Positions 1,930 through 8,802 of a DNA stretch of 10,446 bases are shown in pieces. Location of the stretch: positions 1 through 10,446 of the forward strand of contig DHLW01000073.1 in assembly GCA_002405485.1 (NCBI GenBank), in the 5' to 3' direction. Under the pieces are notes generated by a model, which did no database searches, was not told the origin of the DNA, and saw only the letters and a program-made list of their open reading frames with translations. Position 1 is the stretch's first letter. Every line of letters begins with the position of its first letter. The position numbers and the translations under genes were made by a program. The stretch is from Phycisphaerales bacterium UBA4658. Lineage in GTDB: Bacteria > Planctomycetota > Phycisphaerae > Phycisphaerales > UBA1924.

Positions 1930-3726
1930 ATGGCGGAATCGCGACTGAATCTTGTGGTTGGTGCTCCGCCGGAGGGGTACTCCGCGGTCGCTCTGCCGCT
2001 TGGGCAAGGCGGAGCCGGGGCAGCCGGGGGGCTTCGGCTGAGCGTGCTGGTCAAGAACACGCCTGAACCGGTGGGTGGCTCGCTGGTCGTGCTCCGCGAG
2101 CTGCTGGATGCTCGGGTCCTGCTCGGCTGCCTGTGCGACGCCGCGGGACGGGTCCATCAGTGGGTGGAGATCTGGGTGCAGTCCGACCAGGGGCTGGAAC
2201 AGGCCCCGGCCGGGGTGCGCGAGGTGCTCACCCCGGAAGTGCGCGGCACGCGTTGGGAGCAGATGGTCGGCGCGTACGACGCCTTCGAACGCCCGGTGCT
2301 GATCCGCACGGGCTTCGAGTCCACGCCGGCCCCGGCGATGAGCGTGGAGGTGCCCGCGGGCGGGGGCAAGGTGGAGATGACCTCCCAGCCGGCGCGGCTG
2401 ATGGTCCGGAGCTTCACCCCTCACGGGCTCGAGGCGTTCGCCGGGTTGCTCTCCTCGCCGGTGCTCAGCGGGACGCGGCCCCGGGTCGGGGTGCCGCACG
2501 GGAAGCACGTGATCGACCTGGATCGGGTGTTTGGTGTGTCGGCGCTCGATGGCGGCGGTCTGTTCCTTGGCCAGCCGGGCAAGTGGGGGCGCATGATCGA
2601 GGCGCTGCACCTCAAGCTCCGCCTGCTCTTGGACTGCGTCGAGAGCGTTCGAACGCTCGCCGCTCGGACGCAGCGCCCGGTGCTGAATCTTCGACCAGAG
2701 AGCTTTCAGGTGGCCATCGGGGACGCGGCCCGGGGGCTGCCGCAATGGTGGACGGCGCGGGCCCAGGTGTGTGACCCGGGCGACGCGGTCGCCCTCCCGA
2801 TGCAGACCTCAGACGCGAGCTACTTCCTCTCTGCGTCGATGTCCAGACCAAGCGTGTATCGACCCGAGTCGCTCGGGCTCTCCGGCGGCGGCGGACGCGG
2901 GCAGTTGCGGATTCGCCAGATCCTGACGCAGCGCGGGGAAGAGATCATCCTCGAAGGAACGCTGGTCACCAGCGAGCGCGTCCGCATGACCAAGCACGAC
3001 CTGGTCTGGCTCCGGGCCAGCGTCGGCTCCAGAAGGGTGGACCTGTACGGTCGGCTTGATGGCGACGCCGCGCTCACGGGTGGGGAGCTTCGGCTGCGAA
3101 CGCTCCCTCAGCGGCTTCCGGCCGACGTCTCGGCGTCGCTCAACGCCGCCCAGGGCGTGCCGCTCTCGGACGTGGGGTTTGAGATCGTCCCGCTGGTCTC
3201 CACGCCGTGCGATCTTTATGCGTTGGGCGTGATCGCGGTTCGGCTGCTGCTGGTCGGACGCGGGACAGCCTTGCCGGTGGCTCTGGACGAGATGCTGAGT
3301 CTGGCCCGGGCCGTGAATCAGTCGGCGGGCGGAGCCGGGCCGGTCTCGGGCGTGACGGACGTCTCGAAGCTCGTCGCTCAGGTCTTCTCCTCAGACCCGC
3401 GGTGGTTGCCGGCGCTCGGTCCGCATCGGCTCACCGAGGAAGACGTCACCCCGGAGCAATCGCTGGACTTGGTGCCTCCGGAGGTCTGGTTCGGCGTGCT
3501 GGGGACCATCGTTCAGATGTTCCCCGGGCTGGGGCCGGTCAGTCGAGCTCGGGATCTGGGCGACGTGCGGTTCGGCGGCGCCCACCTTGTGTTCGACGGA
3601 GCCGTGGAAGATCTGGACGTTCTGCTGCGGCGGACGCGCAGCTTGATCGTGATTGATTGGAACGCCAACCGCGAGGTGCACTCGGTTCTCCGGCGATTCG
3701 CGACCGGAGTCGGGACCGGCGGCTGA
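1930..3726 (+). CDS. Degenerate protein-kinase-fold protein (predicted pseudokinase), cytosolic
   Basis: A 598-residue protein with no signal peptide or transmembrane helix. The C-terminal half carries kinase landmarks in order: a helix at about 226-246 followed by VLNLRPES (251-258), which aligns residue for residue with HRDLKPEN; CDPG (281-284) in the DFG position; YRPES (310-314) where the APE motif would be; and DLYALGVIAVRLLL (428-441), matching the subdomain IX helix D-x-W/Y-S-x-G. The catalytic Asp is Asn253, the Lys is Arg255, the metal-binding Asn is Ser258 and DFG is DPG, so phosphotransfer is unlikely. About 115 residues separate the APE-like motif from subdomain IX, where a normal kinase has about a dozen, implying an inserted, strand-rich domain. 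No glycine-rich loop or VAIK lysine is visible in residues 1-225, whose function I do not recognise. It starts the module and lies 46 bp before the lipoprotein gene. The reading frame is secure; the role is inferred. Confidence 0.78.
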   Translation: MAESRLNLVVGAPPEGYSAVALPLGQGGAGAAGGLRLSVLVKNTPEPVGGSLVVLRELLDARVLLGCLCDAAGRVHQWVEIWVQSDQGLEQAPAGVREVLTPEVRGTRWEQMVGAYDAFERPVLIRTGFESTPAPAMSVEVPAGGGKVEMTSQPARLMVRSFTPHGLEAFAGLLSSPVLSGTRPRVGVPHGKHVIDLDRVFGVSALDGGGLFLGQPGKWGRMIEALHLKLRLLLDCVESVRTLAARTQRPVLNLRPESFQVAIGDAARGLPQWWTARAQVCDPGDAVALPMQTSDASYFLSASMSRPSVYRPESLGLSGGGGRGQLRIRQILTQRGEEIILEGTLVTSERVRMTKHDLVWLRASVGSRRVDLYGRLDGDAALTGGELRLRTLPQRLPADVSASLNAAQGVPLSDVGFEIVPLVSTPCDLYALGVIAVRLLLVGRGTALPVALDEMLSLARAVNQSAGGAGPVSGVTDVSKLVAQVFSSDPRWLPALGPHRLTEEDVTPEQSLDLVPPEVWFGVLGTIVQMFPGLGPVSRARDLGDVRFGGAHLVFDGAVEDLDVLLRRTRSLIVIDWNANREVHSVLRRFATGVGTGG

Positions 3727-3759
3727 GCGAAGAGACACACGCAGATCGCACACTTCATT

Positions 3760-3763
3760 GGAG
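3760..3763 (+). promoter_or_regulatory. Ribosome binding site of the lipoprotein gene
   Basis: GGAG ends nine bases before the ATG at 3773. It is the clearest Shine-Dalgarno in the module and fixes the lipoprotein start here rather than at an upstream in-frame ATG at 3653, which would overlap the preceding gene by 74 bp and bury the signal peptide. Confidence 0.65.
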
Positions 3764-3772
3764 AACGCGCAC

Positions 3773-4300
3773 ATGCAGCTTCGAAACCTGGTCCTGATGC
3801 TGGTCACGCTCATGCTCCCGGCCCTGCTGGTCGGGTGCAGCTCGGGTGGACCGGGCAAGTATGACGTGAATGTCGCGCTGGATCAGAGCGTGACCGGGGG
3901 CGTGGTGGTGCCGAGCATCGCCGTGAACATCATCGCCGCCGGCGGCCCGGAGGCGCAGCGCCTGAGCGGGATGAGCATGACCAAGTACTGGCAGCCCGAC
4001 AGCGCCGAGCGCCGAGAACTGGCCCCCAAGACCAAGGAGTTCACCTTCGGTCCTGGCAAGACCGGCGAGCAGCGGCTGCTCAAGAACGACCCGATCTGGG
4101 ACGCATGGAAGGGTGCCGACACGCTGTTCATCTTCGCCAACCTGCCGGGCGGCCACACCGACGCGCCGGGAAACATGGACAACCGGCGGGTCGAACTTAC
4201 GCTCGACAAGTCCCGCTGGGAGACTGGGCAGATCCTGCAGATCCTTGTGGCTCGGAGCAAAGTCAGTTGCCTGACGCCGATGAAGCCGGAAAAGAAGTAA
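3773..4300 (+). CDS. Predicted secreted lipoprotein of unknown function
   Basis: A 175-residue protein with a lipoprotein signal peptide: MQLRN, a hydrophobic stretch to about residue 20, then the lipobox L-V-G-C with the acylated cysteine at C22. The mature part (about 153 residues) looks strand-rich and compact. It shows alternating hydrophobic segments at 46-55 (VVPSIAVNII), a YW pair at 72-73, DPIWDAWK at 106-113, LFIFANLPGG at 118-127, NRRVELTLD at 137-145 and ILQILVARSKV at 154-164. A second cysteine, C166, lies near the C-terminus. It would sit in the inner or outer membrane facing the periplasm; no Asp at +2 argues for inner-membrane retention (+2 is Ser). The size, fold style and pairing with a large one-pass membrane protein recall the TssJ lipoprotein of type VI secretion, but I see no decisive TssJ signature. 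It is co-transcribed with the pseudokinase gene. The lipoprotein call is strong; the function is unknown. Confidence 0.88.
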   Translation: MQLRNLVLMLVTLMLPALLVGCSSGGPGKYDVNVALDQSVTGGVVVPSIAVNIIAAGGPEAQRLSGMSMTKYWQPDSAERRELAPKTKEFTFGPGKTGEQRLLKNDPIWDAWKGADTLFIFANLPGGHTDAPGNMDNRRVELTLDKSRWETGQILQILVARSKVSCLTPMKPEKK

Positions 4301-4315
4301 CCTCCCGCCAGCCCA

Positions 4316-4357
4316 GGGGGCCAGGGGGCGGGGGGCGAAGGTGGGTGGGGGGTGGGG
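4316..4357 (+). other. G-quadruplex-type sequence on the coding strand
   Basis: Six runs of three or more G lie within 42 bases: 4316-4320, 4324-4328, 4330-4335, 4343-4345, 4347-4352 and 4354-4357, separated by loops of 3, 1, 7, 1 and 1 bases. This exceeds the usual four-tract, loops-of-1-to-7 definition and would form in the mRNA, 16 bases after the lipoprotein stop codon. It could cause polymerase pausing, protect the upstream message end, or set the expression ratio of the two genes. Folding is predicted from pattern alone. Confidence 0.6.
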
Positions 4358-4369
4358 CACGGCGTCTCA

Positions 4370-4390
4370 AGGCGATCGTTCAGGCGATCG
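4370..4390. repeat. 9-bp direct repeat AGGCGATCG, period 12
   Basis: AGGCGATCG occurs at 4370-4378 and again at 4382-4390, with TTC between. The 12-bp period puts the copies on nearly the same helical face. With the palindrome at 4432-4448 there are four GCGATC cores (either strand) within 77 bp, which is compatible with a protein-binding site. GATC words are common in this GC-rich sequence, so chance is possible. Confidence 0.4.
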
Positions 4391-4431
4391 GCGGTGCGCC
4401 AGTTGCGCTTGAGCGTCTGGCCTCCGTGCGT

Positions 4432-4448
4432 GCGATCAGGGTGATCGC
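4432..4448. repeat. Perfect inverted repeat GCGATCA-GGG-TGATCGC
   Basis: Two 7-bp arms flank a 3-base centre, 61 bp before the start of the large gene. No T-run follows on either strand, so it is not a terminator; it suits either a small hairpin in the leader or a dimeric regulator's operator. Confidence 0.45.
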
Positions 4449-4509
4449 GGCCTGGCCATCCGGAGCACGCGGCCCGGGTTCGTAGTGTTGACTCGGCTGG
4501 TTGTGAACT

Positions 4510-7500
4510 ATGCCCACCTTCGGCGGATATGCGACGGTCTCCGAGCTCAGCCGAAGCGGGCTGGGGTGCGTCTATTCCGCCGTGGAGACCGCACGTCCGG
4601 GCGACTCGCCCGCGGGCGCGCCGAGGCACGCGATCAAGACCTGCCAGCCCGACGCGGCGATTCTCGGTGACGATGCCGCCGCTCAGTCCGTCGAGCGATT
4701 CGTTGAACATGCCCAGACGCTCCGCGACATCGCCTCCCGACCCGAGTGCCAGTCGCACTGGGCCAGGGTGCATGACATCGGACGAATGGACGGCGACGCC
4801 GGCCCCGGGGCGTACGTGGTCGTCGATCTGGGCACGCGCGGCACGATCGACAAGCTCGCCATGGGGCGGGTTCGCCTGGACGCTCCGGTCCTGAGCCGAC
4901 TGATCCGCGAGATCGTGGCCGGGCTGCGCACTCTTGAAGCGGCGATGCAGCGCGGGCACGGCGCGCTCAAGCCGACGAACATCCTGCTCATCGGGGACAC
5001 CGGCTCGGAGCTCACATCCGCACGCGTCGTGCTTACCGACCCGCTCCCCGCTTCGCAGGCCGACCTGAATCGCGACCGGCTCGCCGACGTGCGCTCCATC
5101 GGCGAGATCATCCACGCCCTGGTGCTGCACCAGAAGTTCAGGGGCGGGTGGCCCGTCGAAGGTTCGGCGGCGTGGACCGCGCTTGGGCCGACCGGCGGCA
5201 AGTGGCGCGAACTGGTCAACCAGCTTCTGGATCCGAACGACAAGGCCCAACGCCCGACTCTTCAGGAGCTGGACGCGCTGCTGACCACGCTGGGGATGGC
5301 CAAGCGGTCCAAGATGCCGCTGGTCGTCGGCGTCGCCGCGCTCGTGCTCGTGGCCGGGGGTGTGACTACCGCGGTGCTCGTGCGTGGTGGAGGACAGGCG
5401 GACCCTGCCAAGCCGGTGCTGACGTTCACGAGGTGGAACGAGGACACCAAGAAGCGGTGGGAGCAGCTCTGCCTGGCCTTCAGCGGGTGGTACGCGCTGT
5501 TCCAGAGCAAGCTGGACGAGCCGCCCGGGGAGGGCCTCCGCGATCGCGGGTTCAAGACGCGGCGAGAGGCCTATGCCGCGCTCGATCCGCAGCTCAAGAC
5601 GCTCCTGGAACTCCCGGGCGTTGGCGCGGGATTCGATCCGTGGTCGATCGCGGGCGTGAAGCGCGACGCCAGCGCCAGACAGCTCTCGGGAATGCTCTCC
5701 GACGAGGTCCGCAGCGACTCCGCGGTCGAAAAGACCGAACGGGCTCTGGAGGCCATCGATGCTGTCCGCACCGGCCTGATCGAGGGCTGGGAAGCGCCGA
5801 AGAAGCTCCTGCAGACCGCCAAGGACTTCCGCGACCAGTTCCCGGGCGCTCCGGCCGTCGACAACGCCGCCAAGTTCGTTGACGACATCGCCGCAAGCGT
5901 GCAGTTCAACGAAGCCACCGACGTTGCGGCGGTCGTGGACAAGGTGCTCGGCGTGGTGCCGATCGTCGAGAAGATCGGTGTGTCCGTCGAGTCCGCCAAG
6001 GCCGCCGGCCAGGCCGTCAAGACCTCGGGCGATCCGTTCCTCTCGAAGTTCGGCGAGCAGGTGACGGCGATGATCGCCACCGGAGCCGGCGCCGGCTCGG
6101 GCCGCGACGCGCTGCTGGCCCTCGAGCGCTCGGCGACGCAGGTCGCCGAGGCGGGCGCCAAGCTGCGGGCCTTCGTCGATGGCCCGTGGAAGCAGATCGA
6201 AGCCGAGGACTTCTTCGCGTCCGCCTCGTACGCCGAGCTGAAGAACCGCCCGGTGACTCCGGAGCTGTTCACCGAGTGGGCGGTCGCAGCGTCTCGCCAC
6301 CCGAGTCTGAACCCAGACGACGACCCGCGCCGCGGCGTGGACTTTGCGGCGGCCCTCGCCGCGCTGGACCAGCAGCGCACGCGGTTTGTATCCGCGCCAC
6401 TCTCCGGGGAGATCGAGCCCGCGCTCGACACTCGGCTTCGGCAGGTGCAGGCCGATGTGTCGGCCATCGCGCCGGATCGGCTCATCTGGCGGCGGGCCAA
6501 CGAGCAGGACGTCCGCACTCGTACGGCGGCGGTGAGAAAAGAGCTCGACGAGCTGCGCGTCGCCCTGGCCACACGGATCGATGCCCGGGCCGCGGAGTTG
6601 TCGGCGACCGCCTCGGAGTTCCGCACGACGCTCCGCGCCCGCAACGAGATCGTCGCGGGATCGGATGCGGTGAACTCGGCGTGGAGGAGCATTCGCGACG
6701 ACCTGTCGGGGTTCCCCGACGAGCAGTACGCCCAGACACGCGCCCGCGCCAAACTGATCGAGGATCGTCTCGTCAAGATCGACAAGTCCGACTTTGAGCC
6801 CGCGCTGGGGGGAGCGGATCAGGATGCGGTTCAGACGGAATGGGCCCAGCAGCTCGCCGTGGCCGCCTCCAGCGAGCGCGATCGACGCATCGCCGGCGTG
6901 CTCACGCTTCAGGGCCGCGCCGCCGACGTCCTCGGGCCGGAGTTTGACGCCCGAATCGTGGCCGAGGCGGAGGCGTTCCAGCGCTGGCAGGCGAGCGTCC
7001 GCGCCATGCGGAGTGAGCTGGCCGCGGCGGAGAACGCGCTGAATGCCGGCACGGATCCCGAGGGCACGCAGCTCGACGCCGCGGTCAGCAAGTGGACCAA
7101 TGACGAGGTGGGCAGGCAGCCGGCAGTGGCCTCGGCGATCGGCGGGCTGAAAGCCCGTGTCCTGGCCAGCAAGGCGCTTGCGACGGAGAACAACGTCGAC
7201 ACGCTGCTGGACAAGGTGCGACGTCCCGATCCCCGACAGCCCGAGCTCGCGCGGGCCGCATGGAAGCGGCTTGGCGATGCAGACGTCGGCTGGCCCCGCA
7301 CGCTGGCCCAGGCGCAGGAGGCCAAGGACGTCATCGCATCGATCCGCGCGGTGATCGGTGGCCTTCCCGACGCGCAGCGGGCCGCGGCGCAGGCCCAGGT
7401 GCAGACCGATCTGGCCTCTCGGTGGCAGCGCCTGGCCCTGGCCGCCGCATCGCCCAGGGACGTTGAGTCGGCCCTGGCCCTCATGGGCGACTTTCAGGTG

Positions 7501-8802
7501 GATCCGGCGAAGATCGACGACCGGCTGAAGCACAATCTCGTGATCATCGAGATGAAACGCGACGTGGCGGCCCAGGGCGTCACCGACGCGCGGGCAAGCC
7601 AGATGGCCGCGGCGTTCGCGCAGCGGATCCGGGGGCTCGGGGTGAACACGCCCGCTGTGCAGGCGATGCTGCGCGGTGTGGACGAGATCGCCCAGAACAA
7701 GGAGCCCGAGAAGCCCGCGATCGACCCTCGCACGCTGGGCCCCGGATCGATGGGCGGGCGGTTCTCGGCGACGTTCGATGCGGCAACCAGCGACCTGCGA
7801 TTCAGTTCCGGCGGCGTTTCGCTCGACTTCGTGCGCGTCGATCTCGGGCCGGACAACGCGGTCTACATCGCCGCCAGAGAGCTCTCGATCGGCGAGATGC
7901 TGGCCATCGTCGCCGGCGGGTCTGGGGCGATCCAGCAGATCGCCGAGGACTCGCCTCGCGGTGCGGATTTCCGCGGCCCACGCGGCTGGGCGTGGGCAAG
8001 CGAAGCCGCGCTCGGGCGCGCGCCGCTGTGGATTCCCAGGCACCCGCTCATGACCACCGCCACGCCCGCGTACGCGCCGGGGATCATCGCTCCCGGCACC
8101 GAGGCCAGCGTGGGCGATCAGGCCGGCGGCGACCCGTCGCCCGAGCACCCCGTGCAGTCGATGTCGCCGGTGTCACTTGGCGTGATCGCCCGTCTGGCAG
8201 GGTGCCGATTCCCGACCGCCGCCGAGTGGCGAGCCGCAAGCCAGCAGTTCAACGGCGGCGGGGGCGCGGGCGCGAATCTGCGTGATCAGGCCTTCGAGCG
8301 GCAGCGGGCGCACGTCTCGGCCATGCGAGCCCAGGCCGGCCCGGCCGAGGACGCCTTCCAATGGCCCGACAACGGCGCGTTCCTCCCCAACAACCCGCCC
8401 GTGGAGGGCGAGGCCCGCTCCCGCGCCGACAACGACGGCGTGCTCTGGTTCACGCGCACCAGCGTCGGGCCAGGCGGCCGAGTGAAGAATCTCGTCGGCA
8501 ATGTCGCCGAGTTCGTGCTGACCGACGGGGCGGCGATGGAGCGGGCCGGCGCCACGTCGGCGTCGCTCTCGGGCATGCTCGAGCGGGCCGGGCTCGCGGT
8601 CATCGGGGGTTCGGCGCTCAGCGACCCGCAGCTTCCCCTCGACCAGCCGCAGACCGTTTCGCTCTTTGACTCCGCCGAGGGGTTGAGCGACGTGGGTGTT
8701 CGGCTGGCCTTCAACGCCGCGGGGACCGCGCCGCCCAAGGAGCCGTTGATCGAGCGGCTGCGGAAGCTCGTGACGGACGACGCCCTGGCGCTCGGACGCT
8801 GA
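4510..8802 (+). CDS. Membrane pseudokinase with long helical stalk and C-terminal FGE/SUMF1-like domain
   Basis: A 1430-residue one-pass membrane protein. Residues 7-262 form a kinase domain: a weakened glycine loop SRSGLGCVY (14-22), AIK with Lys43, HGALKPTN (150-157) in place of HRDLKPEN, TDPL (176-179) in place of DFG, DVRSIGEI (193-200) as subdomain IX and QRPT (247-250) as subdomain XI. The ATP-lysine and loop Lys/Asn survive, but the catalytic Asp is Ala152 and the activation segment is very short, so it is probably a pseudokinase. Residues 270-291 are one hydrophobic helix, putting the kinase inside and the rest outside the membrane. Residues ~300-1060 are Ala/Arg/Glu/Asp-rich and helical, without obvious repeats. 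After a Pro-rich linker, 1083-1402 resembles formylglycine-generating-enzyme/SUMF1 domains: AVYIAARELSIGEM (1117-1130), GCRFPTAAEW (1231-1240), GNVAEF (1330-1335), GGS (1366-1368) and DVGVRLAF (1394-1401). Only one cysteine (C1232) lies in this domain, so the FGE catalytic pair is missing. A TGA directly upstream at 4504-4506 makes ATG 4510 the first possible start; there is no Shine-Dalgarno. Confidence 0.85.
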   Translation: MPTFGGYATVSELSRSGLGCVYSAVETARPGDSPAGAPRHAIKTCQPDAAILGDDAAAQSVERFVEHAQTLRDIASRPECQSHWARVHDIGRMDGDAGPGAYVVVDLGTRGTIDKLAMGRVRLDAPVLSRLIREIVAGLRTLEAAMQRGHGALKPTNILLIGDTGSELTSARVVLTDPLPASQADLNRDRLADVRSIGEIIHALVLHQKFRGGWPVEGSAAWTALGPTGGKWRELVNQLLDPNDKAQRPTLQELDALLTTLGMAKRSKMPLVVGVAALVLVAGGVTTAVLVRGGGQADPAKPVLTFTRWNEDTKKRWEQLCLAFSGWYALFQSKLDEPPGEGLRDRGFKTRREAYAALDPQLKTLLELPGVGAGFDPWSIAGVKRDASARQLSGMLSDEVRSDSAVEKTERALEAIDAVRTGLIEGWEAPKKLLQTAKDFRDQFPGAPAVDNAAKFVDDIAASVQFNEATDVAAVVDKVLGVVPIVEKIGVSVESAKAAGQAVKTSGDPFLSKFGEQVTAMIATGAGAGSGRDALLALERSATQVAEAGAKLRAFVDGPWKQIEAEDFFASASYAELKNRPVTPELFTEWAVAASRHPSLNPDDDPRRGVDFAAALAALDQQRTRFVSAPLSGEIEPALDTRLRQVQADVSAIAPDRLIWRRANEQDVRTRTAAVRKELDELRVALATRIDARAAELSATASEFRTTLRARNEIVAGSDAVNSAWRSIRDDLSGFPDEQYAQTRARAKLIEDRLVKIDKSDFEPALGGADQDAVQTEWAQQLAVAASSERDRRIAGVLTLQGRAADVLGPEFDARIVAEAEAFQRWQASVRAMRSELAAAENALNAGTDPEGTQLDAAVSKWTNDEVGRQPAVASAIGGLKARVLASKALATENNVDTLLDKVRRPDPRQPELARAAWKRLGDADVGWPRTLAQAQEAKDVIASIRAVIGGLPDAQRAAAQAQVQTDLASRWQRLALAAASPRDVESALALMGDFQVDPAKIDDRLKHNLVIIEMKRDVAAQGVTDARASQMAAAFAQRIRGLGVNTPAVQAMLRGVDEIAQNKEPEKPAIDPRTLGPGSMGGRFSATFDAATSDLRFSSGGVSLDFVRVDLGPDNAVYIAARELSIGEMLAIVAGGSGAIQQIAEDSPRGADFRGPRGWAWASEAALGRAPLWIPRHPLMTTATPAYAPGIIAPGTEASVGDQAGGDPSPEHPVQSMSPVSLGVIARLAGCRFPTAAEWRAASQQFNGGGGAGANLRDQAFERQRAHVSAMRAQAGPAEDAFQWPDNGAFLPNNPPVEGEARSRADNDGVLWFTRTSVGPGGRVKNLVGNVAEFVLTDGAAMERAGATSASLSGMLERAGLAVIGGSALSDPQLPLDQPQTVSLFDSAEGLSDVGVRLAFNAAGTAPPKEPLIERLRKLVTDDALALGR

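What the first reader, a model, noticed from the sequence alone, without database searches (positions are those of the whole stretch)
1930..8802. Self-contained three-gene envelope module: cytosolic pseudokinase, lipoprotein, membrane pseudokinase with FGE-like tip
The three genes run together on the plus strand, are bounded by a divergent metabolic pair and a convergent dnaK, and match no named system I know. Predicted locations are complementary: protein 1 in the cytosol, protein 3 spanning the inner membrane with about 1140 residues outside, and protein 2 lipid-anchored in the periplasm. This suggests a complex passing a signal or force between cytosol and envelope, with the kinase folds as scaffolds or nucleotide sensors. 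The co-direction and topology are seen; joint function is inferred.
Basis: partly seen in the sequence, partly recalled or inferred. Interest (0 to 1): 0.75.

Follow-up and report, generated by a model that had tools for sequence, protein, structure and literature searches.

The report
Detached control genes of bacterial harpoon
The three genes are not an unknown free-standing system: they are the separated outer-membrane anchor and two dead-kinase partners of a type VI secretion system (a molecular harpoon), in a version found in planctomycetes and verrucomicrobia whose control protein appears to work without phosphorylation.

Summary
The three genes, their order and boundaries are as described, but the module is not self-contained: it is part of a type VI secretion system (T6SS). 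In 61 loci from named genome records found through gene 1, the lipoprotein is adjacent in 51, gene 3 is present in 51 (both in 48), and the usual order continues into tssK-tssL-tssM; T6SS genes were found in the stretch or the genome for 56 of 61. The window's own genome carries the rest of a T6SS on another contig, without a detectable tssJ. Gene 2 supplies it: its predicted fold matches TssJ structures best, although no sequence family matches. Gene 3 is PpkA-shaped with a formylglycine-generating-enzyme-like tip, but the catalytic HRD aspartate is missing in 41 of 41 aligned proteins. Gene 1 is a cytosolic pseudokinase by fold. No FHA domain lies on the T6SS contigs of four genomes; no PP2C_2 phosphatase was found in two close ones. 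I read it as a T6SS membrane-complex and control block in which pseudokinase scaffolds replace an active kinase. Membership is well supported; mechanism is inferred.

The parts
1930..3726 (+). Gene 1: T6SS-associated cytosolic pseudokinase (598 aa); kinase fold spans residues 21-571 with large insertions
   Evidence: neighbours; T6SS-linked distant relatives
3773..4300 (+). Gene 2: TssJ-type outer-membrane lipoprotein (175 aa)
3836..3838 (+). Lipobox cysteine (residue 22) of gene 2
   Evidence: alignment A2, nearly invariant C22
4510..8802 (+). Gene 3: trans-membrane pseudokinase with periplasmic stalk and FGE-like tip (1430 aa)
4510..5319 (+). N-terminal kinase-like domain of gene 3
   Evidence: profile A3: StkP E 1.8e-13, PpkA 5hnv E 2.3e-7
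4957..4971 (+). Degenerate catalytic loop HGALK (HRD Asp replaced by Ala in the window, by Asn in 28 of 41)
5326..5382 (+). Predicted membrane helix of gene 3 (residues 273-291)
6184..6594 (+). Stalk unit of about 135 aa: one copy here, two or three in 8 of 41 proteins, none detected in 17 of 41
   Evidence: window match E 4.7e-4
7738..8718 (+). FGE/SUMF1-like C-terminal domain of gene 3 (residues 1077-1403)
   Evidence: own profile A4 E 6.8e-96, in which the window is a row; PF03781 in 20 of 23 A4 members, window itself 17.9 bits, under the cut-off; SUMF1 E 3.7e-8 by profile

Best explanation
The three genes are a detached piece of this bacterium's type VI secretion system. Gene 2 is its TssJ, the outer-membrane lipoprotein that holds the TssL-TssM membrane complex. 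Gene 3 is a PpkA-shaped inner-membrane protein whose kinase domain has lost the catalytic aspartate, joined through a periplasmic stalk to an FGE-like tip, the fold that I recall for TagR, the periplasmic activator of PpkA in Pseudomonas. Gene 1 is a second pseudokinase on the cytosolic side. Proposed mechanism: the tip of gene 3 senses envelope state or contacts TssJ-TssM; the signal passes through the stalk and membrane helix to the N-terminal pseudokinase, which with gene 1 forms a nucleotide-gated or purely structural dock for TssK and the baseplate, doing by binding what PpkA-Fha does by phosphorylation. Shown by computation: T6SS linkage, TssJ fold, kinase-like domains, loss of HRD Asp, FGE-like tip, co-occurrence. 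Inferred: sensing, docking and phosphorylation independence.
For: Context: of 61 P1 loci from named records, lipoprotein within 500 bp in 51, gene 3 in 51 (some are fragments), both in 48; some T6SS gene in the held stretch in 41 (34 if ClpV, VgrG, TagJ and TagF are not counted); for the 20 loci without one, 15 of 20 genomes have TssK. Usual order P1-TssJ-P3-X4-TssK-TssL-TssM. In 294 sampled Planctomycetota genomes 68 have TssK and all 9 genomes with a P1-profile hit are among those 68 (p about 5e-6 without the own genome, genomes treated as independent although three of the eight others are of one family, f72); of the 7 genomes with only a partial hit, 6 have it on the TssK contig within 5 kb. 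Own genome: TssK, TssL, TssM, TssA, TagJ, TssB, TssC, two Hcp, TssE, TssF, TssG, a ClpB-type ATPase and VgrG on contig C2; PF12790 gives no match above cut-off and the only A2 match is the window's gene. Folds and profiles. HRD Asp absent in 41 of 41 aligned proteins (window included; 41 of the 51 sequences at hand were aligned), while beta3 Lys is kept in 34, loop Asn in 36, DFG Asp in 36. FGE-like tip by own profile in 38 of 38 gene 3 frames over 1200 aa with a complete end, 17 of 17 of those from loci not used to build it. FHA domains: 6 in G000 and 4 in G095, none on contigs C2 or C94 or near the G095 cluster; PP2C_2 absent from G000 and G095. In Acidovorax, PpkA is reported to interact with TssJ, TssM and TssL and to form a complex with membrane and baseplate parts (PMC12607579, passages read).
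Confidence: 0.6

Rival explanations
1. Gene 3 is only a structural clamp or anchor: its stalk and tip brace TssJ-TssM against the outer membrane or wall, as TssW-like or TagL-like anchors do (TagL recalled), with no sensing; the pseudokinase domains are plain binding folds.
For: Length of gene 3 varies (1244 to 2107 aa among the 42 longest frames), in some relatives with two or three copies of a stalk unit (8 of 41), as for a spacer; the FGE-like tip has no conserved Cys where FGE has its catalytic pair; PpkA itself works partly as a recruiter in Acidovorax (PMC12607579, passages).
Against: Nucleotide-contact residues are mostly kept in gene 3 (beta3 Lys 34 of 41, DFG Asp 36 of 41), which a pure clamp would not need. 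Unit copies do not simply track length: L026 (1920 aa) has one copy, L038 (1829 aa) none.
Confidence: 0.25
2. Gene 3 or gene 1 is an active but unusual kinase, so this is an ordinary PpkA-type phosphorylation pathway.
For: Kinase fold with beta3 Lys, loop Asn and DFG Asp mostly present; PpkA among the profile hits.
Against: Base Asp of HRD absent in 41 of 41 gene 3 proteins; gene 1 lacks recognisable kinase motifs; no FHA domain on the T6SS contigs of G000, G095, G145, G033 and no PP2C_2 in G000 or G095.
Confidence: 0.12
3. A free-standing envelope signalling complex unrelated to T6SS.
For: In the window genome the trio stands apart from the other T6SS genes, beside dnaK. Five of 61 P1 genomes gave no T6SS evidence.
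Against: TssJ fold, conserved run into tssK-L-M, T6SS evidence for 56 of 61 P1 loci, 9 of 9 profile-positive sampled genomes are T6SS-positive.
Confidence: 0.03
4. Relic of a decaying T6SS that no longer fires in this organism.
For: The trio is separated from the rest; gene 1 of this clade lacks a conserved segment present in most relatives.
Against: All three frames are open, and the sheath, tube, baseplate, spike and ATPase genes on C2 are open frames with Pfam matches; the near relative L025 (gene 1 83% identical) keeps all three genes.
Confidence: 0.05

Closest known systems
TssJ (SciN / Lip / VasD) lipoprotein of the T6SS membrane complex
   Same: Lipobox, predicted transthyretin-like beta-sandwich with helices, place upstream of tssK-tssL-tssM in relatives
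   Different: No match to PF12790 or to TssJ chains by sequence; in this genome encoded away from tssK-L-M
PpkA, T6SS threonine kinase
   Same: Kinase-fold N-terminus, one membrane helix, periplasmic C-terminus, encoded in the T6SS cluster of relatives; profile match to 5hnv
   Different: Catalytic Asp lost in all 41 proteins aligned; stalk and FGE-like tip added; no FHA domain in the cluster of four genomes, no PP2C_2 in two
TagR, periplasmic activator of PpkA in Pseudomonas aeruginosa
   Same: FGE-like fold (TagR's fold is recalled, not tested here) and periplasmic place; TagR acts on PpkA (PMC6082577 and PMC6657622, passages)
   Different: Here the FGE-like domain is covalently part of the kinase-like protein; TagQ, TagS and TagT were not looked for
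TssW-PpkA-Fha axis of Acidovorax citrulli
   Same: Inner-membrane PpkA bridging membrane complex and baseplate, with an outer-membrane partner (PMC12607579, abstract and passages)
   Different: There Fha foci need enzymatically active PpkA; here the catalytic residue is absent
IRAK3 pseudokinase and kinase superfamily
   Different: 10% identity, large insertions, T6SS context

Membership tests
Type VI secretion system | Sheath TssB-TssC, Hcp tube, VgrG spike, baseplate TssE-F-G-K and membrane complex TssL-M in the same genome | tested here: met
   Pfam matches on contig C2; TssC
Type VI secretion system | The trio is genetically linked to T6SS genes | tested here: met
   41 of 61 loci hold a T6SS gene in the stretch, 15 of the other 20 genomes have TssK; in the window genome itself linkage is not met
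TssJ | Lipoprotein signal with lipobox Cys | tested here: met
   window residue 22; nearly invariant in A2, whose rows were mostly picked with a lipobox search
TssJ | Transthyretin-like beta-sandwich of TssJ type | tested here: met
   (a predicted model)
TssJ | Match to the PF12790 sequence profile (a detection convention rather than a defining property) | tested here: not met
   0 of 40 members at E <= 0.1; no match at the gene in G000 or G095
TssJ | Binds the TssM periplasmic domain | not testable with these tools
   no complex prediction offered
PpkA | Active Ser/Thr kinase with HRD catalytic Asp | tested here: not met
   Asp in 0 of 41; so gene 3 is not filed as a PpkA, only as PpkA-like in architecture
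PpkA | Fha substrate and PppA phosphatase partners encoded with it | tested here: not met
   no FHA domain on the T6SS contigs of G000, G095, G145, G033; PF13672 in neither G000 nor G095, and not on the T6SS contigs of G145; other phosphatase families not searched
Formylglycine-generating enzyme | Overall FGE/SUMF1 fold family | tested here: met
   PF03781 in 20 of 23 A4 members at E <= 0.01 (members picked by an end motif); profile E 3.7e-8 to SUMF1; window alone 17.9 bits, under the 23.3 cut-off
Formylglycine-generating enzyme | Catalytic Cys pair near the C-terminus (recalled) | tested here: not met
   2 of 23 rows have any Cys in that stretch and no Cys column is conserved there
Protein kinase fold (gene 1) | Kinase-like tertiary structure | tested here: met

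The most novel reading that the evidence does not exclude
A branch of T6SS in Planctomycetota and Verrucomicrobiota has turned the threonine-phosphorylation switch into a phosphorylation-free one: two pseudokinases, one cytosolic and one crossing the inner membrane with a built-in TagR-like sensor tip, relay envelope signals to baseplate docking by conformational change alone, with Fha and PppA dispensed with. Gene 1 would belong to a broader, unnamed T6SS protein family, often with a zinc-ribbon-like insert and at least once fused to FHA, coupling the TssJLM complex to TssK.
Probability: 0.35. Interest if true: 0.78.

Novelty: new variant of a known kind. Interest (0 to 1): 0.6.

Why it matters
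It gives a T6SS identity to proteins whose relatives, where I saw source names for gene 1, are called hypothetical, places a divergent TssJ that sequence searches miss, and exposes a T6SS class whose control protein is a dead kinase fused to its likely sensor. This makes a general question testable: how far PpkA acts as a scaffold rather than as an enzyme.

Tried and rejected
Pfam and NCBIfam on the three proteins gave nothing above cut-off. phmmer of gene 3 against the PDB gave nothing; the profile of its N-terminus did. Profiles of gene 1 and of the lipoprotein against the PDB gave nothing useful. Single-sequence searches for gene 1 and the lipoprotein reached only 3 and 4 of 294 genomes, own included; the gene 1 profile reached 9, but not G096, which the single sequence hit weakly (E 3e-6) and which also has TssK. 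BLAST self-comparison found no internal repeats in 42 gene 3 frames; a profile seeded from three visible units of one relative did, so the repeat claim rests on that seed: at least one copy in 24 of 41, two or three in 8. The search with the broad gene 1 alignment A5 returned 14 proteins (two with organism names, both planctomycete) and showed no other phylum; only 7985 candidates were scored. The gene between P3 and tssK was first labelled TssA by eye; two examples match no family and it is called X4 here. TagF was named by eye; two examples have no Pfam hit. No structure was predicted for gene 3 because both jobs went to genes 1 and 2.

How the counts were made. Neighbour counts use HMMs built by me from seeds that include the window and related genomes, at E <= 1e-3, and are conditional on gene 1 being present; locus L039 appears to be the same contig as seed L014 (same length, same genes). 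Five of the 61 loci gave no T6SS evidence (L043, L047, L060, L064, L078). The kinase alignment A3 holds 41 of the 51 gene 3 N-termini at hand (39 of 49 listed, plus window and L014); of the ten left out, one is the L014 duplicate and two are second frames without a kinase loop match; the readable loops of the rest also lack the Asp. Alignment A4 holds 23 C-termini picked by an end motif, so I tested all 55 gene 3 frames with its profile: 41 match; of the 45 with a complete end 39 match; of the 38 of these over 1200 aa all match, 17 of them from loci outside A4. The lipoprotein HMM does not match the small lipoprotein-like genes beside tssK in L136, L137 and L140; those were read by eye.

Literature: searches. 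I saw listings only, except PMC12607579 (outline, abstract, passages), PMC6082577, PMC6657622, PMC6461901, PMC13373197 and PMC3482391 (passages). None of the listings or passages described this trio; the library holds open-licence papers only. PMC6461901 mentions T6SS in freshwater Planctomycetacia in one passage.
Full report
What is there. The window holds three open + strand genes at the stated coordinates, with 46 and 209 bases between them. Upstream is a divergent dehydrogenase-like gene (PF19328) and downstream a convergent dnaK frame. The window is the first 10.4 kb of a 44 kb contig (C94) of a 3.9 Mb draft genome, G000, 79% complete. The other genes called on that contig showed no secretion genes by eye.

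What it belongs to. Searching the lipoprotein in 294 Planctomycetota genomes gave four genomes, own included. In the three others (G033, G095, G145) it lies in one run with genes that look like tssK, tssL and tssM. TssK is confirmed by PF05936 in G000, G033, G095, G096 and G145. In G145 the run is gene 1, lipoprotein, gene 3, an unnamed gene (X4), TssK, TssL, TssM and a TagF-like gene cut by the contig end. The window's own genome has the rest of a T6SS on contig C2: TssK PF05936, TssL PF09850, TssM PF14331, TssA PF06812 and TagJ PF07024, TssB PF05591, TssC PF05943, two Hcp PF05638, TssE PF04965, TssF PF05947, TssG PF06996, a ClpB-type ATPase and VgrG. No TssJ is found there; the only match to the lipoprotein profile in the genome is the window's gene, and PF12790 finds nothing above its cut-off.

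How general. A scan of a collection of 84,980 species genomes with the gene 1 alignment A1 gave 61 loci, mostly Phycisphaerae and other Planctomycetota, 13 titled Verrucomicrobia or Pedosphaera. With HMMs of my own, the lipoprotein was found in 51 of 61, each within 500 bp of gene 1; gene 3 in 51, some as fragments; both in 48; at least one T6SS gene in 41 (34 if ClpV, VgrG, TagJ and TagF are not counted); TssK, TssL or TssM in 25 of the 38 loci with at least 8.5 kb downstream. For the 20 loci without a T6SS gene in the stretch, 15 of 20 genomes carry TssK. The reverse view: 68 of 294 Planctomycetota genomes carry TssK, and the gene 1 profile hits 9 of 294, all among those 68 (p about 5e-6 leaving out the own genome, with genomes treated as independent). 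Two of the nine carry the full gene (G000, G145). Seven have partial matches in the N-terminal part of longer frames; six of these seven lie on the same contig and strand as TssK, within 5 kb. Four of the seven proteins were scanned and match no Pfam or NCBIfam family. Where I called genes (L136, L137, L140), the order is gene 1-like, a small lipoprotein-like gene (by eye; my lipoprotein HMM does not match it), TssK; an Fha-like gene lies between in L137, and an FHA-like domain is fused to the gene 1-like protein in L136 (by eye). So gene 1 looks like one form of a wider T6SS-linked family. The trio marks a subtype and is not universal: G095, a complete genome of the same family, has the lipoprotein, gene 3 and TssK-L-M, but no detectable gene 1.

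Gene 3. The N-terminal 270 residues match kinases as a profile (StkP E 1.8e-13; PpkA structure 5hnv E 2.3e-7), and 6 of 41 members match PF00069 on their own. The HRD aspartate is absent in 41 of 41 (Asn 28, Ala 6, Arg 3, Glu 2, Gln 1, Met 1), while the beta3 lysine is kept in 34, the loop asparagine in 36 and the DFG aspartate in 36. The membrane helix is at 273-291. The C-terminal part matches PF03781 in 20 of 23 members of A4 and SUMF1 as a profile, without a conserved cysteine where FGE has its catalytic pair (that position is recalled and read from the alignment). The A4 profile matches all 38 gene 3 frames over 1200 aa with a complete end, 17 of them from loci not in A4; four shorter frames with a complete end, over 500 aa, from records titled Verrucomicrobia or Pedosphaera (L069, L072, L082, L084) do not match. 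The stalk carries a unit of about 135 residues once in the window and two or three times in 8 of 41 proteins; 17 of 41 show none.

How it may work. In Pseudomonas and Serratia, a periplasmic input (TagQRST or RtkS) activates the kinase PpkA, which phosphorylates Fha, and PppA reverses this (PMC6082577 and PMC6657622, passages). In Acidovorax, PpkA is reported to interact with TssJ, TssM and TssL and to join membrane and baseplate parts (PMC12607579, passages). Here the PpkA-shaped protein has lost the catalytic residue and carries its own FGE-like tip, and the T6SS contigs of G000, G095, G145 and G033 hold no FHA domain (in G095, a single chromosome, none near the cluster); G000 and G095 hold no PP2C_2 protein (other phosphatase families were not searched). 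The simplest reading is that the protein recruits rather than phosphorylates: the tip meets TssJ-TssM or senses envelope state, and the cytosolic pseudokinase pair docks the baseplate. That last step is inference. A pure clamp role remains a serious rival.

Verdict. I rate it a new variant of a known system.

Noticed in passing
L024:16372-18417 and L024:18601 to L094:8080 (G000 contig C2); L016:8082-17998 (G095): A two-partner secretion pair (in G000 a ShlB-like transporter, PF03865 E 3e-9; and a very long filamentous-haemagglutinin-like protein named by eye) lies inside the T6SS region, between the tssM/TagF-like genes and tssA/tssB, in both genomes.
   Followed up: partly
L024:13649-16087: The TagF-like gene of the window's genome is fused to a second FGE-like domain (PF03781 E 8e-4, below cut-off), a parallel to the tip of gene 3; in G095 the TagF-like protein is short (L016:7057-7968).
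   Followed up: partly
window 1930-3726, residues about 140-155 of gene 1: Gene 1 of this clade lacks a segment (LCxDDALL..GLPxYSTSLHRYLY) conserved in the other aligned members; in several distant T6SS relatives the same segment carries paired cysteines like a zinc ribbon.
   Followed up: partly
L136:8909-12232, P0137: A gene 1-like pseudokinase fused to an FHA domain (FHA read by eye in L136; P0137 carries PF00498), which may link this family to the Fha scaffold.
   Followed up: no
L014:9925-10902, L024:5760-6692 and similar in 30 of 61 loci: An unnamed protein of about 310-325 aa (X4) sits between gene 3 and tssK; these two examples match no family in Pfam or NCBIfam.
   Followed up: partly
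L064, L068, L069, L071, L075: In these Verrucomicrobia or Pedosphaera loci gene 1 is divergent from the lipoprotein and gene 3, so adjacency but not co-direction is conserved.
   Followed up: no
L069, L072, L082, L084: Shorter gene 3 relatives with a complete end but no match to the FGE-like tip profile; no membrane helix was called in L082 and L084.
   Followed up: no
L036, L044: Two loci come from records titled Cyanobacteria bacterium CYA and Leptolyngbya sp. PLA1, which look like mislabelled planctomycete bins.
   Followed up: no
L085:9059-12524: One Verrucomicrobia locus has two TssJ-like lipoprotein frames, one on each side of a gene 1 that is split over two frames; its TssK and TssL frames are split too.
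   Followed up: no
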